DNA from: an uncultured Prevotellaceae bacterium
Lineage (GTDB): Bacteria > Bacteroidota > Bacteroidia > Bacteroidales > Bacteroidaceae
Assembly: GCA_900316585.1 (NCBI GenBank)
Contig: ONDM01000001.1
Location: 310,001 to 374,000, forward strand
Direction of reading: 5' to 3'
Length of the DNA: 64,000 nt
How positions within the stretch are numbered: position 1 is the first letter of the stretch; each line of letters starts with the position of its first letter. A program made the translations under genes and the position numbers. The notes beneath the pieces were generated by a model. The model did no database searches, was not told where the DNA came from, and saw only the letters and a program-made list of their open reading frames with translations. This document shows, piece after piece, positions 40,707-58,711 of the stretch.

Positions 40707-41009
40707 CTATTCAATACGTTTTCTATTGTACCATAATAATACTAGAGCAATTGCCACAATAACATCTACAATATTCCACATTGTTTTACCAAGAACTATC
40801 TTGAAGAAAGGTTGAAATAGCAAAGCAAGTGAACCTGCTATAACACACAGCGGCATCTTTTCATCTCTATAGAAGTTGAATGCCATACAACCAAAAATTA
40901 TCATTGCTGCGAATCTTACAAGACTGTAATAGCCATAAGGCATAGGAAATAAGCATGCAAGCAATGCAATAGCCAACACAAGTCCTATTTTGTAAATCAA
41001 ATTATCCAT
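40707..41009 (-). CDS. small 4-TM membrane protein, copy B
   Basis: A ~100-residue protein with four hydrophobic segments, near-identical in plan to the protein at 42094-42399: shared blocks are LFPMPYGYYSLVRF, FGCMAFNFY/KFY, SLALLFQPFFK, LGKTMWNIVDVIVA and LVLLWYNRKR. The start is placed at 41009 by alignment with the copy (MDNLIYK against MDNILYK) rather than the in-frame ATG at 41063. It resembles DUF6804-like membrane proteins. It is last in the operon, followed by the terminator. Role unknown. Confidence 0.75.
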   Translation of the reverse strand: MDNLIYKIGLVLAIALLACLFPMPYGYYSLVRFAAMIIFGCMAFNFYRDEKMPLCVIAGSLALLFQPFFKIVLGKTMWNIVDVIVAIALVLLWYNRKRIE

Positions 41010-41053
41010 TTTATCTTCTAATGTATCTATCAGTTTGATAATAATCTTAAGTT

Positions 41054-42073
41054 TTATTTCCACCCAGGAAACATCTTCTCCTTTATAAATTTAAACAACC
41101 TAGAACAATATTCAGGATTCTGAATTAAGAACCATAAATCGTCATCAAGAATAGCATATTTCACATTATCTGCAAGGAATTTAGCAGAAGGTGATTCAGT
41201 CTTAATTTCCTGACCATTAGTCCAGTGCAAATGCCAGAAACCATCATTATGGAGAAAATAGAAAGGATAGTCTATTTTTGTATTTCCTGGTCCATTAGCC
41301 CATTCAAAAACCTTGGAATAAAGAAGCCTCAGCTTATCATCCAAATAGATTTTACCATCTTTCAATCCACCCATCATGTGCTCAATCAAAACTGCACAGA
41401 TAAGCGCTGGTTTAGCTATAGCTTTCTGCCCTTCTACTGTAGCCCTGTTAACATTCAGAATCCTCTCCTCATACTCTAGTAAACATTTCTCATAATCATA
41501 ATGACGAAGAACTAACTTTGGTTCATGCTTTTCAGATGAATCAGGGAATCCCTCTTTTAAGAGTTCCTCCAGTTCTGAATCTGGACTCTTTTCTGGAGAA
41601 TCAGGCGTTTCAGATATTTCAGGTTTATTTGGCTCCAACTTAGTGAGATTGAACAGATAGCCTTTAAAAGTCTCAAAGAATGTTGCACGTTCTTTGGCTG
41701 AATAAATATCCTCCAGTTTGAGAATAACAGCTAATCTGGATCGACCCATATAATCCACAACCTCATTGATGCAACGTTTCTCCTTTTCCCATAAACGCTT
41801 CAGTTCTAATTCCTGCTGCTCAGTCCAGAATTCATTCCGATGAACATATATCTGTTTAATGGTAAGATTCTGATTACGGAGTTTAGCCTGACGTTCCGAG
41901 TCATCAAATTTTGACTCCATGCCAGACAAATAGCGCATTTGAGCCAATACGTCCATTTTTACACGACTCAACGTTTCTGCCACATCATACAGAGTCATGT
42001 CCTCTTTCAAGAGTTCTATCAGCTTCTTATTGTCCTGGTCTGTCCAGTTCCGGACACTGTGTCTTTTCTTCAT
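41054..42073 (-). CDS. protein with two Myb/SANT-like units and a restriction-enzyme-type recognition-like domain
   Basis: A 339-residue soluble protein. Residues about 1-50 (NWTDQDNKKLIELLKEDMTLYDVAETL) and 78-125 (FWTEQQELELKRLWEKEKRCINEVVDYMGRS) each look like a Myb/SANT DNA-binding unit. Residues about 225-310 contain KPALICAVLIEHM, IYLDDKLRLLYSKVFE and DYPFYFLHNDGFWHLHW. This is the pattern of the N-terminal domain of ScoMcrA-type and related HNH endonucleases, which in ScoMcrA binds phosphorothioate DNA. No HNH or other nuclease motif follows. A DNA-sensing or targeting role in the operon is inferred. It lies 20 bp after one small membrane protein gene and 44 bp before its copy. Confidence 0.55.
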   Translation of the reverse strand: MKKRHSVRNWTDQDNKKLIELLKEDMTLYDVAETLSRVKMDVLAQMRYLSGMESKFDDSERQAKLRNQNLTIKQIYVHRNEFWTEQQELELKRLWEKEKRCINEVVDYMGRSRLAVILKLEDIYSAKERATFFETFKGYLFNLTKLEPNKPEISETPDSPEKSPDSELEELLKEGFPDSSEKHEPKLVLRHYDYEKCLLEYEERILNVNRATVEGQKAIAKPALICAVLIEHMMGGLKDGKIYLDDKLRLLYSKVFEWANGPGNTKIDYPFYFLHNDGFWHLHWTNGQEIKTESPSAKFLADNVKYAILDDDLWFLIQNPEYCSRLFKFIKEKMFPGWK

Positions 42074-42093
42074 ATTAGATTAATTCTTAATGA

Positions 42094-42399
42094 CTATTCT
42101 TTTACTCGCCTTCTATTGTACCATAATAATACAAGAGCAACTGCCACAATAACATCTACGATATTCCACATTGTTCTACCAAGAACCACCTTGAAAAAAG
42201 GTTGAAATAGCAGAGCTAAAGAAACTGCAACTACACTGAGGATTATATTGTTTTCTTGGTAAAATTTGAATGCCATACACCCAAACACAATCATAGCCAC
42301 AAATCTAACCAAAGAATAATAACCATAAGGCATAGGAAATAAACATATAATTAAAGCTACTGCCAAACCTAGCCCCACTTTATAAAGTATATTGTCCAT
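42094..42399 (-). CDS. small 4-TM membrane protein, copy A
   Basis: A 101-residue membrane protein, MDNILYKVGLGLAVALIICL and onward, with the same blocks as copy B at 40707-41009. The DNA-level similarity of the two copies points to a fairly recent tandem duplication. It begins 32 bp after the nuclease gene, inside the same run of minus-strand genes. Function is unknown; by size and charge it could be a membrane partner or immunity-like protein for the nuclease. Confidence 0.78.
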   Translation of the reverse strand: MDNILYKVGLGLAVALIICLFPMPYGYYSLVRFVAMIVFGCMAFKFYQENNIILSVVAVSLALLFQPFFKVVLGRTMWNIVDVIVAVALVLLWYNRRRVKE

Positions 42400-42431: not shown

Positions 42432-43361
42432 TCAATGCCATTTTCCTAAATTGAACGTAGATTCTAACCGTTCTTCCAAACTGTCATCCAACTGATAGAA
42501 GAAGTCATATCCAGTTATTCTTTCTATATCATCTACAGAATAAGTGGCATTACCCATATTCTGTTTGCTGTTGTTATTATCATAATAAAAGCCTATTGCT
42601 TTCTCCTTTCCTGGATTAAGTGAAAGAACAACCTTAAAGAAACCTGTTGGAACGCTTACTTTACGGTAATGACCTATCTTCTTGATATTTCCAGAATAAA
42701 CAGGACCACAAACTATATATATCTGCCCCTCTTGTTTAGCCCATCTTCTGCAAGACTCTTCCACCTTATTCCAACCACCTGAATTTAAGTAATTGTCTTG
42801 AGGACAGATATTCGTCATATAAAAAGACTCATGCATAGCATTTAAATCCCATTTCACATCTGCAGCCGGACACATATGCCCCCTATCATAACCTAATCCG
42901 GTATATTCATCAGCTGTTATTCTATACTGTGCAGGTAGTTTAGGATCAACATCATAATCATTTGTTCGTCCATACCTGCCCGACACCCGTTCTCTATTTA
43001 AATACCAAGCCACCCAGTTGGGATTATTATGAATGGTATTATAAGATAGAGAAAAGGCAGTATGAGAAATTAATATTTCAGGATTGTCATTCAAACTTCT
43101 TGGGATTTCCAATCCATCCAATGTTTCAGAAACAACAGGCAGTTCTACAAGATCTGTTTCCTTAGGATTTAATGTTATAGTATTTAGATCTGTGTTATCT
43201 ACTTCTCCCTCTTCTTCAACAATAATTGGTTCCTCTTCTGTAAGCTCTGTTGTTTCTATATCTTCTCCATAGTCAGAATCGTTGTCATACGACATAACCC
43301 ATATGACTATAAAAAAGACTATCGCTATTAGACAGATTAGGACTATTGTTGACCGTTCCAT
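42432..43361 (-). CDS. membrane-anchored DNA/RNA non-specific endonuclease (NucA type)
   Basis: A 309-residue protein with one N-terminal TM anchor (VLICLIAIVFFIVIWVM, residues 7-23), an acidic linker rich in Glu (30-75) and a beta-beta-alpha-metal nuclease domain. The active-site motif is GYDRGHMCPAADVKWD (residues 158-173) with catalytic His162, and YMTNICPQDNYLNSGGW supplies the metal-binding Asn. The topology (short positively charged end inside) places the nuclease outside the cytoplasmic membrane. It starts 2 bp after the preceding gene in the motor operon, so it is a likely effector acting on DNA entering through the envelope. Confidence 0.9.
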   Translation of the reverse strand: MERSTIVLICLIAIVFFIVIWVMSYDNDSDYGEDIETTELTEEEPIIVEEEGEVDNTDLNTITLNPKETDLVELPVVSETLDGLEIPRSLNDNPEILISHTAFSLSYNTIHNNPNWVAWYLNRERVSGRYGRTNDYDVDPKLPAQYRITADEYTGLGYDRGHMCPAADVKWDLNAMHESFYMTNICPQDNYLNSGGWNKVEESCRRWAKQEGQIYIVCGPVYSGNIKKIGHYRKVSVPTGFFKVVLSLNPGKEKAIGFYYDNNNSKQNMGNATYSVDDIERITGYDFFYQLDDSLEERLESTFNLGKWH

Positions 43362-43363
43362 AG

Positions 43364-44218
43364 TTAATCCTCAAAATGACCAGCTATATACACGCCTTCC
43401 TCATTATAATACCCATTTACCCATGTCGAGGATAATTGAGGTATATATTGTTTGTTCACAACAGGTTTAATAGGCTTTCTTTGTTTACTCTCTTCATCTT
43501 CAAATAGGGACTTTTGAACAGGTTGTCCATGCTTTTTTGAAGATTTTGATTTCTTTCTTTCTAAGTTTGAATGATTGGCAGCCCAGCTTTCCATTTGATT
43601 TTGCAAATGCCTTTTATACTCAGTTTTGGGGCTGGAAGTCATAATTCCTACAAACAAGTCTCCTTCATTTTTTACATTACAAATCGTATGAGTAATGTAG
43701 TAACGTAGAGCATCATAATCAGCTATTAATTCATCATCATATGGTTCTCTTGTAGGTTCAGGCATTTCCTCTATAGGCAAGAATTCTTCAGCATTATCCA
43801 TTTCTTCTGAAAGCTCATCCTCAGAGTCTTCTGGTGATATGGCATCTTCTTTATCGAAAAATATAATTGGTTTCTTAACAATTTCATCTATTGTTTCAAT
43901 TGAAGGTTTTATATCTTCATCTACAACAGACTGTTCAGCCTCGTATTGCTTCTTTGCCTCTTTAGCTGCTTTCATTCTTGCCACGAAAGCGTCTTTTCTG
44001 GCCTTCTGGTCTAAATACTCTTTTTCGTCCTTTACACTTAAGTGAAAATTATACAAAAGACAAATAATGAAAATAAGACCTATCCCTACCGAAATCTTAA
44101 AGAAAAAGAAAGAGACAACCAGACCAAGAAGATATTTCAATATTACCCTCTTGGTACACATAGACTTCATTGCGTCTACCCTAGTTATTTGTGGTTTGTC
44201 TGTGTTTTTATCTGCCAT
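43364..44218 (-). CDS. membrane protein with acidic linker, motor operon
   Basis: A 284-residue protein. Two hydrophobic helices lie near residues 25-60 (VILKYLLGLVVSFFFFKISVGIGLIFIICLLYNF), followed by a basic coiled-coil-like stretch (KARKDAFVARMKAAKEAKKQYEAEQ), a long acidic region and a C-terminal WVNGYYNEEGVYIAGHF motif resembling the GYxRxxGtyVxGH short motif seen in other bacterial proteins. No enzymatic motif. It overlaps the MotB-like gene by 11 bp and precedes the nuclease by 2 bp, suggesting an adaptor between motor and nuclease. Confidence 0.72.
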   Translation of the reverse strand: MADKNTDKPQITRVDAMKSMCTKRVILKYLLGLVVSFFFFKISVGIGLIFIICLLYNFHLSVKDEKEYLDQKARKDAFVARMKAAKEAKKQYEAEQSVVDEDIKPSIETIDEIVKKPIIFFDKEDAISPEDSEDELSEEMDNAEEFLPIEEMPEPTREPYDDELIADYDALRYYITHTICNVKNEGDLFVGIMTSSPKTEYKRHLQNQMESWAANHSNLERKKSKSSKKHGQPVQKSLFEDEESKQRKPIKPVVNKQYIPQLSSTWVNGYYNEEGVYIAGHFED

Positions 44219-44981
44219 TCAATTTTTCTATCTTCTCCTTAGTTACATCTATATTTCCTATCACTGGAACTATATGAACCAAGAATCTCTGATTTCGCGA
44301 TTCAATAGCCTCCCACTGAGTACGTCTTTCCCTTTCACTTAGATTCCTTAGTGATGTACTGTCGGGTATGATTCTAGGAACACCGTCTTCACCACTACCA
44401 GAAATAATCAACTCACATTTAGGTATTGCTGCAAAATCAATACCGTTCTCTTTCCAGAATTTGTTGAGAAACTGAGCCCTCAGATAAGACAGTGTATAGT
44501 TATTCTTCCAATCACCCTCATCAAACCTAATCTTAGAAGATTGTCCTTCAATTACAACCAAGAATTTGATATTGTTCTTTACTGTATCATTCTCATTTGA
44601 TTCAAGTGAAAGGATCTTATCTTTGATTAATTGACCTGCAGTAAGAATACTATCTCGCTTTAGTTCTGCCTGAGAAGAATCTATCCTATCCAGTTTCAGT
44701 TTGTCCATATGATACTCACCCATCTGATATTCCACATCCACTGTAAAAAGATGCTTCAAATAAATATCATCATAACGGAAATAACGGGTTGAATCTATTG
44801 CACCTACCGTAGAATAGACAGTAATGATATTCTCATATTCATCCACCAAACTTTGAAGTTGCTTTTCCTTGACTTTAAACCGGTTAAAAGAAACAGCAAA
44901 AAGAATAAGTGTTATGGCAAACAAAGTTGTCATAATATCTACATAACTAGGCCAAAAGGAACCTTTTTCTTTACGACTCAT
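44208..44981 (-). CDS. MotB/ZorB-like stator protein with OmpA-type peptidoglycan-binding domain
   Basis: A 257-residue protein. The N-terminal KGSFWPSYVDIMTTLFAITLILFAVSF matches the MotB/ZorB plug and single TM helix with the conserved proton- or ion-binding Asp (D15). The C-terminal part (FLVVIEGQSSKIRFDEG, NYTLSYLRAQFLNKFW, CELIISGSGEDGVPR, RNQRFLVHIVP) has the order of an OmpA-like peptidoglycan-binding domain, with a linker of ~100 residues between. Its start shares one base with the stop of the MotA/ZorA-like gene. Together they should form an ion-driven rotary unit anchored to the cell wall. Confidence 0.82.
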   Translation of the reverse strand: MSRKEKGSFWPSYVDIMTTLFAITLILFAVSFNRFKVKEKQLQSLVDEYENIITVYSTVGAIDSTRYFRYDDIYLKHLFTVDVEYQMGEYHMDKLKLDRIDSSQAELKRDSILTAGQLIKDKILSLESNENDTVKNNIKFLVVIEGQSSKIRFDEGDWKNNYTLSYLRAQFLNKFWKENGIDFAAIPKCELIISGSGEDGVPRIIPDSTSLRNLSERERRTQWEAIESRNQRFLVHIVPVIGNIDVTKEKIEKLNGR

Positions 44982-46687
44982 TACTGTTTCTTACTTCCAA
45001 ACAAATTACCAAACAATCCAGCATTCTCTCTGTTTTTCAACAGTTCTGATATTGCTACTGTATTTGCATCTAGTTTATCCAGGCTAGGTTTTAAAGCATT
45101 CACTCTCTGTTTCAGTGAATCCAATTCATTATAAAGTAATCCAAGGTCTTCTGATAAGCTTTTCGACTTAACCGATTCTGTTTTTAAATCATTAATCTTT
45201 GAAATCAGGGAATTCAGATGCGAATCCAATTCATTTAGGCTAGAACTTATATCATTCAACTTCTTCAGATTAGAGAAATCCTGATGAATCTCATCCAGTG
45301 AAATCTTTTCATCCATTTTCTCCATAAAGAACTTAAGACGCTTGGATACTTCTTCATTATAATAATCAAGCATCTTTTCATATCCCTCCATATGTTCATC
45401 AAGAGCAGCACTATATTTCTTGTTCATTTCGCCTATTACCTTCACCTGCTCTTTATAGAGGTTCTCCAGTTCATCATCTGCCTTTTCTAAGAAACTATCG
45501 GCAATCTTGCTCTTCTTGGATATACCGTTAATCTGGTCTTGGAGCTTATTCACCACATCATTTCCTAGAATCTCCCTCTTATTAAGTTCACCTCCCAGTC
45601 TGTTGATGTTTTCCTCAAAATCTTTAATACGGTTAAGGATTTGATTGACTTTAACTGCCACCTCTTTTGGAACTTCCAGAGAATGGGTATAATCTTCCTG
45701 CATCTTAATGGTTTCCTGAGCAGCAGCAAGCATCATACGCCTTGCCTGTTCAAACTTATTCAGAGATTGAGTGATACCCACAAAGTGATCTGAAGCTTCA
45801 ATATATTTTTCCATTCCTTTCACCAGCCTGTCACTTTGCATAGTTGTAATTAGCTGCTTCTGTAAGGCTATATTTTCATTAATCTTGCCCATGTTTTCTC
45901 CCATAGCCTTAACTGCATTAGCTACCACATTTACATTGGCACCAAAATCTTTACCAAAAGCCTCAACCAATTCTTTGAAGGTTCCATTAAACTGCTTAAT
46001 AATTTTTGAAAATGCTGGTTCAAATTTGTCTACTGTTTCATGGAGTTTTGAGACAGACTTCATCAAACTTACTTCAAAATTCTTGATTATTTCAGTTTGA
46101 ATGAAATCATAAAATTCGTTCTTTTTCTCTTCTACAACTTTATCCTCTTCACTAGCATTTTTATTGTTACGAGTAGTAAGTCCCAAACCAATTAAACTAG
46201 TTATCATAGAAACGAGTACACCCAACAATAGATTACGAATAGAATCATCAGAAATTCCTTCGTTTCCACTAAGTCCAAATAGGAACATAAGAATTCCCAG
46301 GAAAACTCCCGCAAATGTACCCATCAGTCCATAATAAGTAGGAAAAGATAGTTTTGATACGGATTCATCATAAAGAACCCCAAAAACTCGTTCTGTCTTA
46401 TTTTGAATTATGGTAAAATCTACAGTGCCCTTAGTTTTTTCAATATAAGAATTGATTTTGCTTACTAATCCATTATAATCGTCATACCCTTCAATTTCTG
46501 GTAATTGCTTGTAAGAATCTCCTGTTTCAGTATTTTCAACTTCTATAGGCATTCCGAAATCCTTAGGAAAAAACTTTTCACATCTTTTCCTATTCTTTTT
46601 CGTTTCCTGAAAAGAGGAACACTGGAGCCAAAAAAAGAATGCAGCAACTACTATTGAAATAATAAGAGTTAAAAAGAAATCAGACAT
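44981..46687 (-). CDS. MotA/ZorA-like channel protein with long coiled-coil tail
   Basis: A ~568-residue membrane protein. One TM helix lies at the start (FFLTLIISIVVAAFFFWL), a short cytoplasmic section follows, and then two helices SFPTYYGLMGTFAGVFLGILMFLFG and RNLLLGVLVSMITSLIGLGLTTR, the arrangement of MotA/TolQ/ExbB and of ZorA of Zorya anti-phage systems. From about residue 185 to 560 it is predicted coiled coil, like the intracellular tail of ZorA. The ATG at 46687 is used; an in-frame TTG at 46693 is unlikely. It sits between the ATPase gene (2-bp gap) and the MotB-like gene. Confidence 0.82.
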   Translation of the reverse strand: MSDFFLTLIISIVVAAFFFWLQCSSFQETKKNRKRCEKFFPKDFGMPIEVENTETGDSYKQLPEIEGYDDYNGLVSKINSYIEKTKGTVDFTIIQNKTERVFGVLYDESVSKLSFPTYYGLMGTFAGVFLGILMFLFGLSGNEGISDDSIRNLLLGVLVSMITSLIGLGLTTRNNKNASEEDKVVEEKKNEFYDFIQTEIIKNFEVSLMKSVSKLHETVDKFEPAFSKIIKQFNGTFKELVEAFGKDFGANVNVVANAVKAMGENMGKINENIALQKQLITTMQSDRLVKGMEKYIEASDHFVGITQSLNKFEQARRMMLAAAQETIKMQEDYTHSLEVPKEVAVKVNQILNRIKDFEENINRLGGELNKREILGNDVVNKLQDQINGISKKSKIADSFLEKADDELENLYKEQVKVIGEMNKKYSAALDEHMEGYEKMLDYYNEEVSKRLKFFMEKMDEKISLDEIHQDFSNLKKLNDISSSLNELDSHLNSLISKINDLKTESVKSKSLSEDLGLLYNELDSLKQRVNALKPSLDKLDANTVAISELLKNRENAGLFGNLFGSKKQ

Positions 46688-46689
46688 AA

Positions 46690-49600
46690 TCAAATCTTGG
46701 TCATTTCAAATACACGGTTAATAATAGGCAGGAAGAAGACTGTATCAAACAACATATCCTCATCGCTATATTGTTCCCTTACTTCAGTCTTGAAATAGGT
46801 ATCAAATGGAGTACCCATATCTTCACCAGCACAATCAGCATAAACCTTTGGATTTATTGTATCGTCAAGGATACCAGCCGTTTTCATCTTATCAAGAACC
46901 TTCTTGTATAGATTTGACAAATTCTTATATTTACTTAATAATGTGGCTTTTAAATTATCATAATCTTTAATCAAATCATCTACTTTCACGTATTTACCAG
47001 CAGAATCACATTGATAAACAAATTCAGGAACAGCCTCTGCATCTGAAGAACGATAAAGTCCACCATAGCATGTAGACTCTTTCCTTTCCTTTGGAAGTTG
47101 CAAGCTCACATCATTCTTTCCACCAAAAACTTCATCAAAAACAGTGTCTACTATTTCCTTTAGAATTCTTTTGTCAGAAGAAATGAAACTGTCTATATAC
47201 TTACTACCATTTCCACTGAAAACAACTGTTTTTGGAGCCATCAGGTTCTGGTCCTTATACATATTTGCCATATAGAAAAGGATGGAGACAAAGTGATATA
47301 TGAAAAGTGGCTTATACTCATCACGAAGAGACTTAACTATATCACAATGGCTGGAATTTCCTAACCAGAAATTAATGATATCCTTGGTTTTAACCAAAGT
47401 GTCAAGTTTCATACTATCATTTAGATCCTCCAAATCTTTTCTATCGAATCTAATAGTATCTTTATACTTATTATAAATACCATTTTCCCTGGCATTTTCA
47501 AAATCCACAAAACCATTGTCCCAAAGCACATCACAACCGAAGTGAACAGAATTAGCCATCTTTGGCTTATTGTCCTGGAAATAGACAAAATCAGTAGAAC
47601 CACCACCAATATCTATCACTGATACGGCATCAGAATTCGGAATGATATTCTTCTTCTTGAAATAATAATATGGAGCCTCTGATTCTGAGAAGCAATCTAC
47701 CTGACTAGGCTGGATGAACAGAATATCTTCTGGTTCCTTATGCCAAATGTCTTCATACATACTCCGGATAGTTCCTCTGAAACTCAATGGCTTAAACCAT
47801 ACCAAACGAGTACGATTTAAATCACCGTTGCGCTGCAAAATATCACACTTGATAATCAGCAGAAGCTCACGTACAAAAATCTTTAATTTAGCTTCATCTT
47901 TCTCCCATTTAATATCCGTATAAATAACCTGATCATTGTTTGACATCAATTTCTCATAGAAGAAAGCTATGTTATGATTATCAAACAACTTAGGTTTATT
48001 TGCATTACTCCTTATTGCACATAAAGCTGTTCGGATAGGGAATTTATAATCCTTACCATCAATAATTGCAGGAAGAAATTCAGTCTTAATCTTATTCCTT
48101 GCCTGAAGGAAGATTGAATCTTCAATGCACCTATTTGTAGAGAGCTGACTATCTTTCAAAGGCTCATGCAGGAAGTTTACTATAGGTTTTTCTACAGTAA
48201 AAAGTTCTGGCAAGTTGTTTTCTCCATTCTTACACCGTGAAATGAAAGTATTTGATGTACCTAGGTCAATAGCATAAGTATACGTATCATTGGTACGTTC
48301 ACTCCTATTCCACACAGGAATCAAAAGACCCGTATCACCGTGCAGGTTTATCTCCATTGCATCGAATGAGGTATTAAACAGCTCATAGAATTTTGTACCT
48401 CCATCTACAGAAGTACTCTTTTGACGAGAACGGACATATGGTGGGCAGGTACCAAACTCCACATTTTCAGTAGGGTCTACCTCCTTTATCGGAATAAAAT
48501 CTTTTCCAGAATTCTTAAAGAAAGTCAAGCTTATATTATCCACATTAAGATTAGGAGCCTCTGCATCCTCATCGGCTGCCACCAGCATTACCTTAAAATA
48601 GTTATTCTCAGCTTCATTATATGATAATATGTTCGGGAATAAACCTAAATCAAAGTTGACCCTTGCTGCTCTTAGATTAATAATACGGCCCTGAGAAGAA
48701 TTTACAGGATCCTCATTATAAGTCTTCTTATATTCTTTGTTATTATATTTCAGGGTAACCGTTATATCATTCCTGCCGATGTGAACTTCAGAATCAATCT
48801 GCTGGCCATCATAGAGATTAAGGATTTCCGGTTTAAATGGAAGAAGATAATCGTAATCCCTTTCTTTTTTGTCATTCTTATATTTTACTGCTATAAAATT
48901 GTCCCGAGAGATACGGTATGGAACTTTGATAATGGTTCTGTTGAAATAGCTCATGATATCAAGAGCATCTGAAGATTTGAATGTCAACCCATTAACAACG
49001 AGTGGATCATTCTGGTCTGTCATGACATCGGCTAGCTTCAAATGATAGTCATTACGGATTTCCACGTCATCCTTAAATGAACGGATATATTCTTTAATAA
49101 ACCTATATCTACCATCCAGAGAATCAGAAGAAAACAGTTCATTATACATATAGTTCTTGAAATCAGCATCACGCTCTCCGAATAGTTTAATATCACGGAA
49201 ATACTCCCCACCTGATTTTCTTCTTATATGGAGGTTCTCATACTGTGAACCAGAAAACTTATAACTAATCGTATTGTTTTTCTTTACTATGGATTTGTCC
49301 ATATCTGGAGGTGTGACAAAACCTGTAAGAGGAGAGCTACAAGCCAAAAGCTTATCCTTTCCATCTTCTGTATAGACAAGGAAATACAGTTTATCTTCTT
49401 TAATATCCGTACTATAGTAATTGTGAATAGAATTATAAAGTACAGGCATCTTATCCTTTATGACTTTAAGATTTTCCTCACTCTTCCATTCTCTCAACTC
49501 TATTTTCTGCCCCTTAGTGAACGTATTATTATTATGATACTTCAAATTGAAAAGCAGTTCATAAACATCCAGAATATCAGACACAAGCTGCCTATAAGCA

Positions 49601-49830
49601 AAACCAGCTTCTTTTTTACTATCCTTATTTTCTTCCGTGACACGACGAAAAGCCTCTTTAGCCACAAAGAAACGAGCAAAAGGCGTTGGCAATGAGTTCA
49701 GAGCACCACAGTTATCTGTCTTTTGCTCCATCACCTCATCCAAGTGGTCAGCAGTTAGTCCTACATTTTCTGCAATCCAATCTGTTCCCTGAATACCACG
49801 GTCTACTATATTCAAATCTATTCTTGCCAT
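46690..49830 (-). CDS. giant actin/Hsp70-like ATPase
   Basis: A 1046-residue cytoplasmic protein. The second half holds an actin/Hsp70-fold ATPase: phosphate-1 AIDLGTSNTFIS (about residue 518), phosphate-2 SVIDIGGGSTDFVYF (about 737) and adenosine motif VVFSGNGSKYIDSF (about 869). The first ~510 residues are unlike any domain I recognise, with beta-rich character in the middle. The overall plan recalls the virulence-factor SrfB family, which also carries an actin-like ATPase in a very large protein, but this is a tentative comparison. It lies between the tubulin-like gene (6 bp) and the ZorA-like gene (2 bp). Confidence 0.82.
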   Translation of the reverse strand: MARIDLNIVDRGIQGTDWIAENVGLTADHLDEVMEQKTDNCGALNSLPTPFARFFVAKEAFRRVTEENKDSKKEAGFAYRQLVSDILDVYELLFNLKYHNNNTFTKGQKIELREWKSEENLKVIKDKMPVLYNSIHNYYSTDIKEDKLYFLVYTEDGKDKLLACSSPLTGFVTPPDMDKSIVKKNNTISYKFSGSQYENLHIRRKSGGEYFRDIKLFGERDADFKNYMYNELFSSDSLDGRYRFIKEYIRSFKDDVEIRNDYHLKLADVMTDQNDPLVVNGLTFKSSDALDIMSYFNRTIIKVPYRISRDNFIAVKYKNDKKERDYDYLLPFKPEILNLYDGQQIDSEVHIGRNDITVTLKYNNKEYKKTYNEDPVNSSQGRIINLRAARVNFDLGLFPNILSYNEAENNYFKVMLVAADEDAEAPNLNVDNISLTFFKNSGKDFIPIKEVDPTENVEFGTCPPYVRSRQKSTSVDGGTKFYELFNTSFDAMEINLHGDTGLLIPVWNRSERTNDTYTYAIDLGTSNTFISRCKNGENNLPELFTVEKPIVNFLHEPLKDSQLSTNRCIEDSIFLQARNKIKTEFLPAIIDGKDYKFPIRTALCAIRSNANKPKLFDNHNIAFFYEKLMSNNDQVIYTDIKWEKDEAKLKIFVRELLLIIKCDILQRNGDLNRTRLVWFKPLSFRGTIRSMYEDIWHKEPEDILFIQPSQVDCFSESEAPYYYFKKKNIIPNSDAVSVIDIGGGSTDFVYFQDNKPKMANSVHFGCDVLWDNGFVDFENARENGIYNKYKDTIRFDRKDLEDLNDSMKLDTLVKTKDIINFWLGNSSHCDIVKSLRDEYKPLFIYHFVSILFYMANMYKDQNLMAPKTVVFSGNGSKYIDSFISSDKRILKEIVDTVFDEVFGGKNDVSLQLPKERKESTCYGGLYRSSDAEAVPEFVYQCDSAGKYVKVDDLIKDYDNLKATLLSKYKNLSNLYKKVLDKMKTAGILDDTINPKVYADCAGEDMGTPFDTYFKTEVREQYSDEDMLFDTVFFLPIINRVFEMTKI

Positions 49831-49836: not shown

Positions 49837-51234
49837 TTACTTATTGATTTTACTTGTGTAATAATTAATAGCATCATACGCAAACTGCAGGAAATACCTG
49901 AACTTGTTGCTATGCTTGTCCGATTTGTCTTTATTGCTGGCTTTAATCATTTCCAACAAATAATAAGAATCATCTTTTGCATCCAGTTCCAAGCCAACAA
50001 TCCAGCCTGACATTTTCTGCAGATCATCGTAATGCAGAGGTGCGAAAGCACGCTTGTTTTGAGCTAGTTCTGAATACCACTTATTATAAATGGCATTAAA
50101 ATGCTCAAGTGCTTTAAATGGTTCATCCTTATAAAAAGATTCATTGAACCCCCGGTTCTTTTTCAGAGGGAAATACTTTTCTTTAGGCAGTTCACCAGCC
50201 AATGCACTAAGCAACATATAATCAGCTACAGATTTGACCAACGGATCATAGCCTTTACCTAATGAGCTCCGGTCCAAAGAATCCACATCCTTCTCTATTG
50301 CACGTGACAGAAATTGTCTGGTTTCAGGCTTCTCTCGTTTCAGGAAATCAAACAAGGCAGACGCAGCCACAAGTTCTATGAAATTAGCTTTGTCATCCTG
50401 TTTCTTCTCATCATTCTCATAAACCTGTTTCAGCGTTTTCTCACCTATATAGTAGAGATAGTCTGATAGTACTGTTCCTTCATAATAAGCCAATGCAGAT
50501 TTTGTCTTTGTATAGAAATTAGCAGAATCAATATCACTGTTAGTTGATGCTGGATCTTTCAAACCATAATATGGCAAAACAGTAACAGCTCCCATCAATG
50601 CATTTTTAACTGCAGGCTCATTCTCTGCTCCCTTTATTTTCTTTTCCAGAAGTGGATATCCAGAAGCTCCAGTACCTCCAAAGATTGAACTAATAATGAA
50701 GATTCTATCATCTTTTTCACAATGGATTTTAAAGGCCTTAAACCAATCTGCGCCTTCTATCATCTCACCCAGGACTACGGTTCCCATGTTTGGATTTCCC
50801 TTGAAACCAACAGAGAGTTGACTGTCCAAATTCTTGGAGGAATATAGTGTCTCCACCAGATAATTATTAATGTCATCAGCTCTTAAATTAGAAGTCTTGA
50901 TGTAAGAACTGAATTTTTCCTTACTTCCTACTGGCTCTTGTGTATCATTGGACTGGTTGTTCAACTGGCTTAGTAGTTTTATCTCAGAATTAAAGAAACC
51001 ATCCAGAGGATTCAACGTTGACGTGCCATTATTGATGGAGTTTTTATAGATATTAATATAACTGTCCAACAAGGAATGCAGGTTCTTTTTCTCCTCTAAA
51101 TCAAGATGAGGATCTAGAATGATAGGAACCACTGTATATCCATTGGTGCTCATACCACCAGCCATGAGCATGGTTATACTCTTCATTACTCGGATTCCGG
51201 TTCCACCCACACAGAAAACAAATACTTTTTTCAT
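49837..51234 (-). CDS. tubulin/FtsZ-like GTPase
   Basis: A 465-residue protein. Residues 8-15 (CVGGTGIR) are the nucleotide-binding N-terminal glycine loop, and ISSIFGGTGASGYPLL (residues 181-196) corresponds to the tubulin/FtsZ signature GGGTG[ST]G. It is therefore probably a member of the tubulin-like families (Tubulin_2-type) rather than FtsZ itself: no other cell-division gene is near, and length and C-terminus differ. It could polymerise or serve as a GTP-dependent switch for the neighbouring actin-like ATPase and motor. Gaps to both neighbours are 6 bp. Confidence 0.8.
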   Translation of the reverse strand: MKKVFVFCVGGTGIRVMKSITMLMAGGMSTNGYTVVPIILDPHLDLEEKKNLHSLLDSYINIYKNSINNGTSTLNPLDGFFNSEIKLLSQLNNQSNDTQEPVGSKEKFSSYIKTSNLRADDINNYLVETLYSSKNLDSQLSVGFKGNPNMGTVVLGEMIEGADWFKAFKIHCEKDDRIFIISSIFGGTGASGYPLLEKKIKGAENEPAVKNALMGAVTVLPYYGLKDPASTNSDIDSANFYTKTKSALAYYEGTVLSDYLYYIGEKTLKQVYENDEKKQDDKANFIELVAASALFDFLKREKPETRQFLSRAIEKDVDSLDRSSLGKGYDPLVKSVADYMLLSALAGELPKEKYFPLKKNRGFNESFYKDEPFKALEHFNAIYNKWYSELAQNKRAFAPLHYDDLQKMSGWIVGLELDAKDDSYYLLEMIKASNKDKSDKHSNKFRYFLQFAYDAINYYTSKINK

Positions 51235-51240: not shown

Positions 51241-51684
51241 TTAGATTTTAAAGATTCTATACGCATTGGTAGGTAGCAAATTGCACCAAATAAATGAAAC
51301 TATAAGATAAATCCCAACTGAATAAAGGGCATTTCCAAATGCTATTTTCAATTCCAATGAAACTGCCCCAGACAAATGTGGAGGACATAATAGATATTCA
51401 ATACCAAAGGTTACCAAAAAACATATAATAAAAGTAGCTAACAGATAAATTAACCAATCTTTAGGTTTATAATGTCTTCCAGGTTTATTATTCCAATAGG
51501 TATAATAGGTAACTGCCAGCACGGCACCTAAAAAAATAAAAAGAAATACAATAAACAATGAATAGCCCTCCAAACTTCTCCAGAACTTTCTTGCCTCATT
51601 AAGAAGTTCTTCATTCTCTCTGAATGGTTTACTAAAATCGGATACAGTTCCTATAAGCCATTTATATAGCTCCAGCAGTTTCAT
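51241..51684 (-). CDS. three-TM membrane protein, motor operon
   Basis: A 147-residue membrane protein with helices near LFIVFLFIFLGAVLAVTYYTYW, LIYLLATFIICFLVTFGIEYLL and ALYSVGIYLIVSFIWCNLL, and an N-terminal ~40-residue amphipathic segment. The ATG at 51684 is preferred to the TTG at 51690; it lies 2 bp after the preceding stop. I recognise no family. Its position between the vWA-like lipoprotein and the tubulin-like GTPase suggests it links envelope and cytoplasm. Confidence 0.72.
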   Translation of the reverse strand: MKLLELYKWLIGTVSDFSKPFRENEELLNEARKFWRSLEGYSLFIVFLFIFLGAVLAVTYYTYWNNKPGRHYKPKDWLIYLLATFIICFLVTFGIEYLLCPPHLSGAVSLELKIAFGNALYSVGIYLIVSFIWCNLLPTNAYRIFKI

Positions 51685-51686
51685 AA

Positions 51687-52955
51687 TCAATAATTTTTAG
51701 ATACCAATATATAATTATAATCCATTTCCTTGTTCACAACTCCTCCTTGGAACATTCCAACAATGAAATTATCCACAGAATAAGACTTTGTTACATCATC
51801 CTCATTATCACCGCCTAGATAAGCACCAAACCTGCTTATATTCAAATCCGGTAATTTCAGGGTCCATTTTATCACTTCTGCTTCAAGTGGCATGTTATAC
51901 AGCTTCAGTTCTACTGTAGCTACAACCTTGCGATCTAACTTCTGATTAGTGATATTCTTGACATCCATAGAAACCAATTTTGTCTTTACAGAAGAGCCAT
52001 AAGTCGTCTCCACCTGAAGAGCCTCGTTGAATACATTCTCATCAGTAAGAATCCAACGGTAGTTCTCCAAATTAACTTTTAACTTAATTGTACAAGTATC
52101 ACCGTCAGCATGCTCCTCGTAACTAGTGAAAGTAGGTTCATCCTCCATCTGGTCACACATAAATGAGATTCCGAAAGAATGAGTTGGAGAGCCAAACTTA
52201 AAACCTGTCTCTATATTATCAATAAAATGACCACTATCCTCCAAATAAGTAGAAATACAATTTCTTACAGAAGCCACTTTTTCCTGATTACCTAAAACCA
52301 GAAAATAATATGGAGAATTCTCATAAACCACATTTCCCTTTTTATCCAGATATTCCGATGTGGCACCTATAAGTGAAACGGCCTGCTTAGCTTCACCCAA
52401 AAGTTTGCTGATATCAGAACTATATTGAGTAAGCAGAACCTTAGGAGCTGCAGAACCCACAGGACTATATTTCATATCAGAAATCAGTACAGCCACTCCC
52501 TCAGGATTTTCAGCTAAATCATCTAAGATAGTTTTCAGCATCAAAGGAACTTTAGTAGAAGCCGTAGAAACAAAAGCTCCCGTATTCATCATAGTCTGAA
52601 ATTTAGGTAGAGCAATGCTCATCCCCTGAGTGCCATCATTGGTGAGTACATTCACTTCAGGAATCAATGGCGAATAATAGCTTAGTATACGCCATACATC
52701 TGTTTTAAACTGTGTAGGTTGATTAGCACGAAAGAAGCCATTCATACTTCCTGAAACCTCTACATAAACTTTCAAATTTGTAGGATCTTGAACAGTAAAG
52801 GCAGGCACTGCATTTGCACTATCTTTTATCAAATAACCATCTTCTGTGAAATGAGAGTCAAAAACTGCATTCACATTTCCAGAACAGGAAAAAAACAAAG
52901 AGCCGAAGAAGAATACTACGGCTAAGGTTCTGAATAATATAAAGATTTTCTTCAT
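51687..52955 (-). CDS. vWA-like lipoprotein, first gene of the motor operon
   Basis: A 422-residue lipoprotein: signal MKKIFILFRTLAVVFFFGSL with lipobox LFFSC. The first ~190 mature residues look like a von Willebrand A domain: VYVEVSGSMNGFF is the metal site with Glu in place of the usual Asp of DxSxS, and GVAVLISDMKYSP carries the later Asp. The C-terminal part is beta-rich (IKLKVNLENYRWIL, RKVVATVELKLYNMP). It is periplasmic or surface-located and probably senses or binds a partner. It heads the operon; no two-box promoter was found in the 324-bp gap upstream. Confidence 0.78.
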   Translation of the reverse strand: MKKIFILFRTLAVVFFFGSLFFSCSGNVNAVFDSHFTEDGYLIKDSANAVPAFTVQDPTNLKVYVEVSGSMNGFFRANQPTQFKTDVWRILSYYSPLIPEVNVLTNDGTQGMSIALPKFQTMMNTGAFVSTASTKVPLMLKTILDDLAENPEGVAVLISDMKYSPVGSAAPKVLLTQYSSDISKLLGEAKQAVSLIGATSEYLDKKGNVVYENSPYYFLVLGNQEKVASVRNCISTYLEDSGHFIDNIETGFKFGSPTHSFGISFMCDQMEDEPTFTSYEEHADGDTCTIKLKVNLENYRWILTDENVFNEALQVETTYGSSVKTKLVSMDVKNITNQKLDRKVVATVELKLYNMPLEAEVIKWTLKLPDLNISRFGAYLGGDNEDDVTKSYSVDNFIVGMFQGGVVNKEMDYNYILVSKNY

Positions 52956-54495: not shown

Positions 54496-55992
54496 CTACT
54501 TTTTTTTAAACAATTCTCCCTGAACCCAACTATCAGCAGCTTTTTCATAATTAACAGGTTGTGAACTAGTAGAATATGGCACTGATTTCAAATGCCTGTT
54601 AACAATGTTAAGTATATATTGCCTGTTTAACCAATACCCTCTTTTTAATTGTGGGCCATAAGGAGTATCCATTTTATCACTTGAATCCTTGGCTTTTGGT
54701 CTTACATGACATATTTTATCATCAGATATTGAGATAAAATGTTCAAAATCCCCTTTCTTAATTTTATCCTTTGTATCTAGCCAAAACAACTTAGCTGTTT
54801 CCAAGTCTTTGGGAGGCATTGTCCAAAAGAATACTTTTTCTAGTTTAGCCAACTTATCAATGTCACTGCTATCTTTTCTGAAAACGATGAATAGGAATCT
54901 TTGTGTAAGAATCTGGTACCACTCAGAATCTTCCCATCTTTCCTCATTTACAATTTCGTTGTATTTGATTTGGGAAAAGACCATACTTTCTTTTAAGTTT
55001 CCATTACTCTCTAAACGAATGGTTTTCTGTTGTAGATTGGCTTTTTCAAACTCTGCTATCTTTGGAGTCTTAACCCCTAAAATGGCATGCACTACTGCAT
55101 TAGAAATAGCTTTAGGACTGAAAGTAAACACAACTCTCAGCTTTGTTTCTATTTCCTTTATAGTCTTTCCGTAATATGGCTTAAATTTTCTTTCTACAAG
55201 TTCTTCAAATGTTTCTGACTCCTGATATTCATCAACGGATTTAACAAGGCTAGAAACCTCATTAATAGCTTTTTCTATTTTCTTCTTCTGTGATTTACTA
55301 ATATATAAGCCACTACACATCTCTGGATGAAGCAGAGACTCTAAAATAATGGAATTTAAATACTTAGATTTTAAGGAATAAGCTCTTTGGTCTGCAAGTT
55401 CGTTAGAGTTTTTTTGTTTGCGTTTCTCTGCACCCGACTTTGAACCTTTAGTACAAGCACCTAAATATAGCGTATCTCCTTCTGAAATTTCGTGAGCAAG
55501 TCCATGCGTCAGCTTATAATGAATCTTTTCCCAATCGTCTTTTATAATCTTCAAGTCAGTTTCAGGGAACTTCCACAATCTTATAATCTTGAATACAAGA
55601 TCTATTACATTAACCCCCTTTTCATGAAGATAGAACATCAAAAGAAGATGCTGGTTTTTATGCCAGAAACTACTGGTCTCGAATGTATTATCTGCCTCTT
55701 TTAAATAATCAATGATATTAAGAACCAATCGTTCTTTTGATACCATACTCCCATCATCAATTTGCTTTAAAGGAGTACATTTAAGTTCTATACCAACTTC
55801 ATCAAAATCGGGTTTAGCCTCACTGTTTGGCTCATAATTGAAATGATATTTCTCTACACATTGACCTAAGCGTCCCTTCCCTGTATAAAGAGAGGATACT
55901 TCTGGATGCAATTCTCTAATACTTCTACCTAATAACTTTCTGGCATATTCAAGTATAGAAGCTTCGGAAGACCTATCAAACAATTTGTCCAT
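54496..55992 (-). CDS. Sau3AI/MutH-family type II restriction endonuclease
   Basis: A 498-residue enzyme, close to the length of Sau3AI, which cuts GATC. The N-terminal MutH-like domain has the catalytic set KPDFDEVGIELKCTPLK (Asp62/64, Glu69, Lys71) and the preceding GKGRLGQCVEKYHF. The second half repeats a MutH-like fold without the catalytic set (for example EFEKANLQQKTIRLESNGN and following), as in Sau3AI. GATC specificity is inferred from the family. It starts 1 bp after the methyltransferase stop, so expression of both is linked. Confidence 0.9.
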   Translation of the reverse strand: MDKLFDRSSEASILEYARKLLGRSIRELHPEVSSLYTGKGRLGQCVEKYHFNYEPNSEAKPDFDEVGIELKCTPLKQIDDGSMVSKERLVLNIIDYLKEADNTFETSSFWHKNQHLLLMFYLHEKGVNVIDLVFKIIRLWKFPETDLKIIKDDWEKIHYKLTHGLAHEISEGDTLYLGACTKGSKSGAEKRKQKNSNELADQRAYSLKSKYLNSIILESLLHPEMCSGLYISKSQKKKIEKAINEVSSLVKSVDEYQESETFEELVERKFKPYYGKTIKEIETKLRVVFTFSPKAISNAVVHAILGVKTPKIAEFEKANLQQKTIRLESNGNLKESMVFSQIKYNEIVNEERWEDSEWYQILTQRFLFIVFRKDSSDIDKLAKLEKVFFWTMPPKDLETAKLFWLDTKDKIKKGDFEHFISISDDKICHVRPKAKDSSDKMDTPYGPQLKRGYWLNRQYILNIVNRHLKSVPYSTSSQPVNYEKAADSWVQGELFKKK

Positions 55993-55993
55993 T

Positions 55994-57364
55994 CTACATA
56001 TACTGCAACAAACTTAAAGCTATTCGATGAATAATTCCAGTAACAAGGGCATTCCCCATTAAAAAGGCTCTCCTTAAATCAGAAGACAATTCGGTGTGAT
56101 TATCAGGGAACATATTAAGGCGTTCCAATTCAATTGGAGTCAATCTTCTCAGCTTTCCTGATTCAGTCCGTATTACATGCTTAAACCTAGATGGAGCTGG
56201 ACCTCCCTCACCCGTAATAATCGTTCTGGAAGGGCCATCAGTATTATCAGGGAAGACCATACTACCTTCAGAATAATTGTATTCATATCCTTCTGATGAA
56301 ATTCTCTTTTCAGACTTTCCTCCCTTTAAATACTTCCATTTTGGCAAATCTTTATCATCAATATAGAAACTTGAAGGAACTTCAGATTCTGGTAAAAGAA
56401 TATCACCTAAAGTAATATGTGGATTTAAGGAATCATATATAGGCTCTACCTCCATTGTAAAAACTTGATGTTTTGACATAAAACCAGCATTACAAAATGG
56501 GCTATTTCCAGATTTTGATTCTTTATTGAATTCTTGAGTAACTTTCACAAGGTCAGAATCAAGTATAAATTCAGAACAATTTTTTTTCTTGGATGAAGCA
56601 GCACAAGGGAAAGCTTGAGCTATAACACTTTCTTTAAGCAACCAATCATTTGCATCAGTCTTTTCTAAATTATTTGCAAGCTTTGTATTTAGCTTATATG
56701 CTACAATATATGTTCTTCTTCTCTTCTGTGGCATTCCATAGTCAGCAGCATTAATAATTCTCCATTCTACACAATAGCCCAAATTAGCTAAAGAAGACAA
56801 TATAATAGCAAAATCACGACCTCTTTGAGATGCAGGTGATTTTACCAATCTATCCACATTTTCAAGGAATAAGTATGATGGTGCCTTATCTCCTTTTCGT
56901 TCAAGAATTCTATAGATTTCCCACCATAAGACACCTTTCTTACCCTCAATACCTCTAGAGTTTTTTAATGTTGTGGCAACAGAATAGTCTTGACATGGAA
57001 AACCTCCACACAACAAATCATGATTAGGAATGATATCCTCAATTGATTCGTTAACCAAATGAATGTCAGAGTTTTCATGACCATCTGAACCAAACTTTGC
57101 TTTATAATTATCGGAAGCATCCTGTGCTTTAGTTGCCGGTTCCCACTGATTATTCCAAACAGTATAAAATCTTTCAGAGGCTACTTCAAAGCCTATACGG
57201 AATCCACCCACACCAGCAAACAATTCCACAACCTTAATCTCATCATGTTTTTTATCCAAAGAGAGATTCACGTTATGATTTGATACAAAAGCCTTCGCAG
57301 ATTCCTGGAAATAATTTGCAATAGGTTTATAGAGGTTATTTAAGTCGTTCTTACGGTCAGACAT
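55994..57364 (-). CDS. DNA (cytosine-5) methyltransferase, Sau3AI-type RM
   Basis: A 456-residue C5-cytosine methyltransferase protecting sites cut by its partner. Motif I is VVELFAGVGGFRIGFE (residues 45-60), the catalytic PCQ is in GGFPCQDYSVA (121-131), ENV is in YLFLENVDRL, motif VIII is MPQKRRRTYIVAY, and the C-terminal FLMGNALVTGIIHRIA is motif X. The target-recognition region is the variable stretch at about residues 240-400. The partner is a Sau3AI-type endonuclease, so GATC with methylated C is the probable target. Confidence 0.93.
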   Translation of the reverse strand: MSDRKNDLNNLYKPIANYFQESAKAFVSNHNVNLSLDKKHDEIKVVELFAGVGGFRIGFEVASERFYTVWNNQWEPATKAQDASDNYKAKFGSDGHENSDIHLVNESIEDIIPNHDLLCGGFPCQDYSVATTLKNSRGIEGKKGVLWWEIYRILERKGDKAPSYLFLENVDRLVKSPASQRGRDFAIILSSLANLGYCVEWRIINAADYGMPQKRRRTYIVAYKLNTKLANNLEKTDANDWLLKESVIAQAFPCAASSKKKNCSEFILDSDLVKVTQEFNKESKSGNSPFCNAGFMSKHQVFTMEVEPIYDSLNPHITLGDILLPESEVPSSFYIDDKDLPKWKYLKGGKSEKRISSEGYEYNYSEGSMVFPDNTDGPSRTIITGEGGPAPSRFKHVIRTESGKLRRLTPIELERLNMFPDNHTELSSDLRRAFLMGNALVTGIIHRIALSLLQYM

Positions 57365-57442: not shown

Positions 57443-57868
57443 TCAAAAAATAATAAATTTAATAAGGATAAAAACCATACAAGCCAAGGTTGGGATTCCG
57501 TAAAAAACAACCAACGTAAATGAGAACATTGTTTTAAAAACTATACCACAGTTTACATTTCTTGGATTAAGTCCATATTGTCCTTCCAAATTATCAACTT
57601 TACGTTTTTCAAGCATATCTTCATACATTTTTCTGTATTTCATTTCTGTGTGAAGATAAAAAGTATCGAGTACCCAAAAACATATAAAAGGAATAAATGT
57701 AGTAAACAAGAACAAATTAAAGGTACCCAAATTAGCTCCTTTTGTAAATACAGTAGCACCTGCAAATAAAGTTAAAGCCCAACCTTTTATCATAAAGGAG
57801 TTTTGAGCCATCCTGCTAATGCAACTTTGTAATAAATCTATTTCTTTAAACAATTCATCCTTATCCAT
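57443..57868 (-). CDS. multi-TM protein paired with TIR protein (candidate effector)
   Basis: A 141-residue protein with three or four hydrophobic helices: MIKGWALTLFAGATVF, NLFLFTTFIPFICFWVLDTFYL and FSFTLVVFYGIPTLACMVFILIKF, with a charged cytoplasmic loop (TEMKYRKMYEDMLEKRKVD) between. It begins 2 bp after the TIR gene, so the two are almost certainly a unit. In Thoeris and related systems TIR proteins make a nucleotide signal that activates an effector; a small membrane protein could be a pore-forming effector here. That is inference. Confidence 0.72.
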   Translation of the reverse strand: MDKDELFKEIDLLQSCISRMAQNSFMIKGWALTLFAGATVFTKGANLGTFNLFLFTTFIPFICFWVLDTFYLHTEMKYRKMYEDMLEKRKVDNLEGQYGLNPRNVNCGIVFKTMFSFTLVVFYGIPTLACMVFILIKFIIF

Positions 57869-57870
57869 AA

Positions 57871-58539
57871 TTAAACCTCCTTAGTAATCTCAAAAGAATA
57901 AATATCGTATTGTCTTTCTACAGCTTGATTAATATAAAATTCAGGATATTTTATAAAATCTTCCCATCTAACAGGCTCTATATATGAATAACTTCCATAA
58001 TAATGAAAATTTTGGCATTGATAACAAAAATGTTTTCTTGGATTTTTGACATTAAACATATTATCTCTGATAATTTTAAACAACTTATCAATATGATGAA
58101 TTGTTGCGCCACAATAACTTGTTGTAAAAAAATACTCATAACTACCATTAATGTCAGGTAAAACAATTGCTAAAATAGCATTACTATGACTCGTTCTATC
58201 ATTACGAGTAGTTTCCTTTAATGAAAAAGATATTTCCCATGGAATCCACTGACTCCTATCACTCCTGTTTTGCTGTTTCATTTGAGGAGAAATCATCACA
58301 ATAGTTACTGAACTATCGAAAATACGGTCTTTGAGTTTCTCCCAGATAGCATCATCTGAAAGATAACTCAAATCTTCATCATCAGACTCACCTTTGTAAA
58401 TATGATTAGAAGAATCAAAATAATCCTCTAATTTATCTACATAATCTCTTACTGTAGTAGGATTCCAATAGGAATGACCTGGCAACTCCTGAACATCAGA
58501 GTCTTTGTACTTATACGAAATAAAAATCTTTTTGCTCAT
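57871..58539 (-). CDS. ThsB-like TIR-domain protein
   Basis: A 222-residue protein of the TIR-like family used by ThsB (PF08937-type). The first strand is KKIFISYKYKDSDV, followed by SSVTIVMISPQMKQQ and WIPWEISFSLKET, with the Glu in WEIS in the position of the TIR catalytic Glu. The C-terminal ~90 residues (GATIHHIDKLFKIIRDN, HFCYQCQNFHYYG) are specific to this group. ThsB enzymes turn NAD+ into a cyclic ADP-ribose isomer upon infection. It is followed directly by the multi-TM gene and faces a SIR2 gene across a 259-bp gap. Confidence 0.8.
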   Translation of the reverse strand: MSKKIFISYKYKDSDVQELPGHSYWNPTTVRDYVDKLEDYFDSSNHIYKGESDDEDLSYLSDDAIWEKLKDRIFDSSVTIVMISPQMKQQNRSDRSQWIPWEISFSLKETTRNDRTSHSNAILAIVLPDINGSYEYFFTTSYCGATIHHIDKLFKIIRDNMFNVKNPRKHFCYQCQNFHYYGSYSYIEPVRWEDFIKYPEFYINQAVERQYDIYSFEITKEV

Positions 58540-58703
58540 AAATAATTAATTTAATACGCTACAAAATTGCACAACTATTTTGCCAAACTATGTCAATTGG
58601 ATTGTATTTATAGTTAACTAATATTAAATACCTATGGACATTGAATGAAACTTTGAATAGGAACTAAAGTAATAAAATTATTCTCTCGTAATAATATTTT
58701 TAC

Positions 58704-58711
58704 TAACTTTG
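58704..58711 (+). promoter_or_regulatory. -7 box for the SIR2 gene
   Basis: TAACTTTG matches TAnnTTTG; it lies 87 bp before the SIR2 start. No TTTG at 19-21 bp was seen. The 259-bp divergent region 58540-58798 is extremely AT-rich and shows no other clear element. Confidence 0.4.

What the first reader, a model, noticed from the sequence alone, without database searches (positions are those of the whole stretch)
44208..46687. ZorA/ZorB-like pair with long coiled-coil tail and OmpA-type anchor
The 568-aa protein shows one plus two TM helices and ~370 residues of coiled coil; the 257-aa protein shows the MotB-type Asp in its only TM helix and an OmpA-like domain. The tail length fits ZorA better than flagellar MotA, and no flagellar or Tol gene is near.
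Basis: partly seen in the sequence, partly recalled or inferred. Interest (0 to 1): 0.7.

Follow-up and report, generated by a model that had tools for sequence, protein, structure and literature searches.

The report
ZorAB-like motor in tubulin-actin operon
The two genes encode a membrane motor resembling the one in the Zorya antiviral system, but they belong to an apparently undescribed bacterial operon that also makes tubulin-like and actin-like proteins, and which is probably an antiviral or envelope-stress machine.

Summary
On the minus strand, a 568/570-aa protein (three TM helices, then a ~394-aa heptad tail) overlaps a 257-aa protein (one TM helix with the MotB-type Asp, then an OmpA-like domain). 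Family profiles match Zorya ZorA and ZorB first. MotB is weaker, ExbB reaches only two members weakly, and no TolQR, ExbD or GldLM match was listed. The tail is conserved (307-483 aa in 31 homologues).

It is not a Zorya system. No ZorC, D, E, F or G is present, and scores are far below curated cut-offs. The core order recurs in 43 other genome loci. The vWA-TM-tubulin-actin core also occurs without the motor, in a Prevotellaceae clade and on a cyanobacterial plasmid.

Patchy distribution, low G+C, a restriction/Thoeris/McrBC island and swappable nuclease/protease/DUF4357 genes suggest an envelope-sensing conflict system in which cytoskeletal NTPases replace ZorC-G. Against that, the motor-less Prevotellaceae version sits in an ordinary chromosomal location. 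Function is inferred, not shown. I found no published description of this gene set in the open-access library searched.

The parts
51687..52955 (-). vWA-like protein (422 aa) with N-terminal signal/TM and a lipobox-like Cys; MIDAS-like motif EVSGSM (Asp replaced by Glu)
   Evidence: the homologue on a cyanobacterial plasmid carries the canonical DxSxS (IDASGSM); no PDB profile match
51241..51690 (-). 149-aa membrane protein, 3 predicted TM helices
   Evidence: a small membrane protein is conserved at this position in nearly all loci
49837..51234 (-). Tubulin/FtsZ-superfamily GTPase-like protein (465 aa), GGTG-A-G phosphate loop
   Evidence: Pfam Tubulin in 12 family members and Tubulin_2 in 8, of 14 tubulin-like members scanned; AF2 pLDDT 82, pTM 0.86; all top 50 Foldseek hits are FtsZ/tubulin (TM-scores mostly 0.2-0.4)
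46690..49830 (-). 1046-aa actin-superfamily (ASKHA) ATPase: ~510-aa unknown N-terminal part plus an actin-like C-terminal half with phosphate motifs intact
   Evidence: AF2 pLDDT 84; Foldseek top hits ParM/MreB, E 4e-9, TMt about 0.5-0.59
44981..46693 (-). ZorA-like motor subunit, 3 TM plus ~394-aa heptad tail (568 aa if started at the ATG at 46687)
44208..44981 (-). ZorB-like subunit: single TM with invariant Asp15, OmpA-like C-terminal domain
43364..44218 (-). 284-aa TM protein at the position where clade-A relatives encode DUF4357 (RAMA-like) repeat proteins; no detectable homologue among the fetched loci
42432..43361 (-). NucA-type DNA/RNA non-specific endonuclease with N-terminal signal anchor (predicted extracytoplasmic)
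   Evidence: Pfam Endonuclease_NS E 1.2e-53; TM 5-23; conserved downstream in most clade-A loci and fused to a trypsin-like lipoprotein in L062

Best explanation
This is a membrane-anchored conflict system, most likely anti-phage. Sequence shows: the ZorA-like/ZorB-like proteins form a MotAB-superfamily pair closest to the Zorya motor, and they are encoded with a tubulin-superfamily GTPase, an actin-superfamily ATPase, a vWA-like lipoprotein and a 3-TM protein. Inferred: ZorA5ZorB2 sits in the inner membrane with ZorB reaching the cell wall. Envelope disturbance by an incoming phage opens the ion channel, and ZorA with its long coiled-coil tail turns or reorients. The tail passes this to the cytoplasmic NTPases, which assemble or change state instead of the ZorC/D/E effectors. 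Exchangeable partners (periplasmic nuclease or protease, DUF4357 proteins related to DNA-associated RAMA domains) do the damage or add recognition. Steps after motor assembly are not shown.
For: Profile matches to Zorya ZorA and ZorB above MotB, with ExbB marginal and no TolQR/ExbD/GldLM match listed. Invariant ion-path residues and conserved tail length. Operon with gaps of -4, +6, +6, -4, -1, -11 and +2 bases. Gene order conserved in 43 other loci, with ZorAB in both main clades of the tubulin tree. Nucleotide motifs intact in the tubulin-like and actin-like proteins. Patchy presence: genus 1/6, family 42/301, phylum 13/396. Island G+C 0.35 against 0.51. Beside Type II R-M, PDC-M50A, ThsB with a ThsA-like protein, and McrBC. 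Neighbours in 20 loci match 140 PADLOC models, against 19 for control regions of the same genomes. Swappable nuclease/protease/DUF4357 genes.
Against: A Prevotellaceae clade keeps the core without ZorAB in a fixed housekeeping context, so the core may serve another purpose. The PADLOC neighbour count counts models, not proteins, and R-M proteins that match many models inflate it. No defence assay exists. The OmpA-like domain lacks the GHTD motif. Several clade-B ZorA-like tails end in a TM helix, which I do not know from Zorya. Tubulin fold TM-scores are low (mostly 0.2-0.4).
Confidence: 0.55

Rival explanations
1. A membrane-remodelling or envelope-maintenance cytoskeleton (an FtsZ-like-1 type system as proposed by Makarova and Koonin) in which ZorAB only supplies wall anchoring and force. 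It sits in a defence island by hitch-hiking.
For: Makarova and Koonin 2010 (PMC2875224) describe FtsZl1 operons with vWA and OmpA-family genes. The Prevotellaceae clade keeps the core in a stable chromosomal context beside MetA- and U32-type genes (gene names by my reading of the sequences). The core occurs on a Synechococcus plasmid without the motor.
Against: The window's ZorAB-bearing copy is of foreign composition and surrounded by defence genes, and the family is sporadic. The swappable nuclease and protease genes are hard to explain as housekeeping.
Confidence: 0.27
2. A divergent Zorya subtype: ZorAB acts as in Zorya and the NucA-type nuclease is simply the new effector. The tubulin, actin and vWA genes are a separate neighbouring system.
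For: ZorAB are the best matches. A nuclease follows the pair in most clade-A loci.
Against: Gene order and overlaps join all genes. The tubulin and actin genes accompany this ZorAB in all 43 loci with both, although loci were fetched by the tubulin gene. The nuclease has a signal anchor and is predicted outside the cytoplasm, unlike ZorE. Clade B has proteases instead.
Confidence: 0.12
3. A TolQR/ExbBD, GldLM or flagellar-type stator with no link to Zorya.
For: Same superfamily; MotB_plug matched by 12 of 50 members, MotA_ExbB by 6; ExbB by 2 members, weakly.
Against: ZorA and ZorB outscore MotB in PDB and NCBIfam searches; no TolQR, ExbD or GldLM match was listed. The long tail is conserved.
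Confidence: 0.05

Closest known systems
Zorya ZorA/ZorB motor (types I/II; 8vvn, 8vvi, 8qyd; PMC11890865)
   Same: MotA-type TM pair with polar Thr/Ser positions, ZorB TM Asp, long cytoplasmic ZorA tail, ZorB OmpA-like domain; best profile matches
   Different: No ZorC, D, E, F or G; scores far below curated cut-offs; partner genes are tubulin-like, actin-like and vWA-like; GHTD motif degenerate; several clade-B tails end in a TM helix
FtsZl1 / Tubulin_2 operons (Makarova and Koonin 2010, PMC2875224)
   Same: FtsZ-like protein lacking a recognisable C-terminal tubulin domain, with vWA and OmpA-type proteins; weak Tubulin_2 matches in 8 family members
   Different: Own genome has no Tubulin_2 match; no coiled-coil C-terminus; an actin-like partner and a MotA-type motor are not mentioned in that paper's main text
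GTPase-centric conflict systems with tubulin or HSP70 (Kaur et al. 2020, PMC7159879)
   Same: Combine tubulin- or HSP70-family proteins with vWA and membrane components; proposed anti-viral
   Different: Centred on DO-GTPase and GAP1, which no tool identified here; no MotA or ZorA component is mentioned there

Membership tests
Zorya | ZorA: MotA-type TMs plus long tail | tested here: met
   (profile level; the window protein alone is matched mainly through its coiled coil)
Zorya | ZorB: TM Asp plus OmpA-like domain | tested here: met
Zorya | Peptidoglycan-binding residues (ZorB I H186, L199, R203, R254, R259 in PMC11890865) | tested here: inconclusive
   By position in the motif, the Arg after LS is invariant; the His is replaced by Gln/Asn/Met; the C-terminal Arg (R232) is kept in 24/31
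Zorya | Effector genes ZorC+D, ZorE, or ZorF+G | tested here: not met
   No such PADLOC match in the operon or the predicted genes of 40.7-63.8 kb that were scanned
Zorya | Score above the curated ZorA/ZorB cut-off | tested here: not met
   ZorB1 13.5 bits against cut-off 400; ZorA_1 23.2 against 190
Zorya | 5:2 stoichiometry, ion-driven, anti-phage | not testable with these tools
   needs cryo-EM and phage assays
FtsZl1/Tubulin_2 | Tubulin_2 Pfam match over cut-off | tested here: not met
   no match at E<=0.001 in own genome; 8 family members match weakly, best 1.1e-5
FtsZl1/Tubulin_2 | vWA and OmpA-type neighbours | tested here: met
Tubulin/FtsZ superfamily | GTPase-domain fold and GGGTG-type loop | tested here: met
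   (fold match partial)
Actin (ASKHA) superfamily | Phosphate-1, phosphate-2 and adenosine motifs, actin fold | tested here: met
Kaur GTPase-centric systems | DO-GTPase plus GAP1 | tested here: inconclusive
   no P-loop GTPase or GAP1 match among operon proteins in Pfam/NCBIfam at E<=0.1; GAP1 was not searched with its own profile

The most novel reading that the evidence does not exclude
An ion-driven 5:2 rotary motor whose cytoplasmic tail drives or gates tubulin-like and actin-like NTPase assemblies in the same complex: a wall-tethered mechanosensor coupled to a two-component cytoskeleton, used for phage defence.
Probability: 0.3. Interest if true: 0.9.

Novelty: new variant of a known kind. 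Interest (0 to 1): 0.68.

Why it matters
As far as I know, Zorya motors have been described only with DNA-targeting effectors, and FtsZ-like-1 systems, named in 2010, were left with a predicted membrane-remodelling role and no worked-out mechanism. This operon links the two kinds and adds an actin-family ATPase. It gives a concrete, testable route to what FtsZ-like/vWA operons do, and shows that the ZorAB module can be joined to, or lost from, a different cytoplasmic machine.

Tried and rejected
Zorya proper: rejected for lack of ZorC-G and for low scores. Tol/Exb/Gld/flagellar: rejected on profile scores, although ExbB reaches two members weakly. Member of Tubulin_2: not met at cut-off. Phage or plasmid origin of the window operon: no phage match and only two plasmid-collection matches, neither close; two IMG/VR contigs carry 78%-identical copies, and I saw no obvious phage genes in the 21 kb held, though PHROGs were not run on them. 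Conventional vWA match by PDB profile: none; the assignment rests on motif and on the cyanobacterial homologue. No paper joining tubulin-like proteins with ZorAB was found; only open-access papers were searched.

Full report
What is there. The pair lies on the minus strand: ZorA-like 44981..46693 (570 aa from TTG, 568 from the ATG at 46687) and ZorB-like 44208..44981 (257 aa). TM helices are predicted at 5-23, 123-141 and 155-173, and at 14-32. The ZorA-like tail of 394 residues has heptad periodicity far above shuffles (z = 10.9), and the tail is 307-483 residues long in all 31 sequences aligned. ZorB Asp15 and ZorA Thr126 and Ser166 are invariant in 31/31.

Which family. Profiles of 31 sequences each were run against all PDB sequences. 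ZorB-like gives ZorB type I (8vvn, 1.5e-11), then ZorB 8qyd (7.4e-7), then MotB 6ykp (0.009). Leaving coiled-coil matches aside, ZorA-like gives ZorA type II (8vvi, 2.5e-7) and type I (8vvn, 2e-6) and a further ZorA (8qyy, 3.8e-5). Entries 8vvi and 8vvn are cited in the Zorya structure paper PMC11890865; which is type I and which type II is my reading from chain lengths. PADLOC ZorB1 models match 25/25 ZorB-like members. NCBIfam ZorB1 matches 22, against MotD 11, MotB 3 and ExbB 2. All scores are far below curated cut-offs: the window ZorB-like gets 13.5 bits against 400. So it is ZorAB-like, not Zorya.

The operon. Eight genes run 52955 -> 42432 with gaps of -4, +6, +6, -4, -1, -11 and +2 bases: vWA-like lipoprotein, 3-TM protein, tubulin-like, actin-like, ZorA-like, ZorB-like, 284-aa TM protein, signal-anchored NucA-type nuclease. 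The tubulin-like protein has the GGTG loop. Its AF2 model (pLDDT 82) retrieves only FtsZ and tubulins among the top 50, but with low TM-scores (mostly 0.2-0.4), so only the GTPase part is recognisable. Family members match Pfam Tubulin (12) and Tubulin_2 (8). The 1046-aa protein has invariant phosphate motifs, and its model (pLDDT 84) retrieves ParM and MreB first (E 4e-9, TMt about 0.5-0.59). The vWA assignment rests on the motif EVSGSM/ENSGSM and on a homologue with canonical IDASGSM on a Synechococcus plasmid; no PDB profile hit supports it.

Relatives. A genome scan with the tubulin-like protein gave 80 loci. Forty-three carry both ZorA and ZorB after the tubulin and actin genes; 21 with at least 4.5 kb of room do not. 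The tubulin tree has two main clades. Clade A, with the window, has no gene between actin and zorA, and is followed by DUF4357 (RAMA-related) proteins and a nuclease in most loci. The window differs in having an unrelated 284-aa protein there. Clade B has an extra membrane gene X, and secreted trypsin-like or retropepsin-like proteases after ZorB in many loci; L062 fuses a trypsin and the nuclease. Several clade-B ZorA-like proteins end in another TM helix. On this sampling the tree needs 3 changes for ZorAB, which I read as loss in Prevotellaceae. Because loci were fetched by the tubulin gene, this does not show how often such ZorAB occur without it.

Context. Genus 1/6, family 42/301, phylum 13/396 genomes have the tubulin-like gene. 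The region 40.1-64 kb is 35% G+C against 51% to its left. It holds a Type II R-M pair, PDC-M50A, ThsB with a ThsA-like protein, and McrBC. In 20 other loci, 112 neighbouring proteins match 140 PADLOC models, against 19 models for 110 control proteins drawn from 18 distant regions, 40 kb or more away as a rule, of the same set of genomes. These are model counts, inflated by R-M proteins that match many models, so this is suggestive only.

Mechanism, and where it is weak. I commit to a wall-tethered, ion-driven ZorAB sensor/motor that passes an envelope signal through its tail to tubulin-like and actin-like NTPases in a conflict system. Shown: homology, motif conservation, operon conservation, patchy distribution, and for the window a defence-island location. 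Inferred: 5:2 assembly, ion flow, tail-NTPase contact, anti-phage function. Against it: the Prevotellaceae version without ZorAB sits in a recurrent chromosomal context that I read as ABC-F, M13 peptidase, MetA and U32 peptidase genes, and the core occurs without the motor on a cyanobacterial plasmid. The core may therefore have a wider envelope role.

Known work. Makarova and Koonin 2010 described FtsZl1 operons with vWA, GTPase and OmpA genes; neither MotA nor HSP70 is mentioned in the main text, and actin appears only as background. Its supplementary family list was not read, so overlap with the core cannot be excluded. Kaur et al. 2020 described GTPase systems with tubulin or HSP70 but mention no MotA or ZorA system. 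A 2023 FtsZ/tubulin study set the Tubulin_2 group aside as divergent. No held paper found joins tubulin-like proteins and ZorAB; most subscription papers and recent preprints were not covered.

Noticed in passing
54496-57364: Type II restriction enzyme (MutH/Sau3AI-like) plus C5 cytosine methyltransferase pair upstream of the operon.
   Followed up: partly
57443-59737: ThsB (TIR-like, PADLOC E 8.6e-80) divergent from a 312-aa SIR2-like protein weakly matching ThsA: a possible unusual Thoeris pair, with a PDC-M50A membrane protein next to it (57443-57868).
   Followed up: partly
60190-63752: McrB-type AAA protein with an EVE domain followed by McrC: a Type IV restriction module.
   Followed up: partly
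40707-42399: 339-aa protein (41054-42073) whose C-terminal part weakly resembles phosphorothioate-DNA-binding restriction enzymes (31.8 bits against cut-off 180), between two small DUF6804-type membrane proteins.
   Followed up: no
L107:8014-14844: Four-gene core (vWA with canonical MIDAS, TM, tubulin-like, actin-like) on a Synechococcus NIES-970 plasmid, without ZorAB.
   Followed up: partly
L062:18303-19745: Lipoprotein fusing a trypsin-like protease to a NucA-type nuclease right after ZorB, recalling the peptidase-NucA systems of Kaur et al. 2020.
   Followed up: no
L029 (genome G704): Three ZorB-like copies in one genome, two in tandem, one of them with an internal stop.
   Followed up: no
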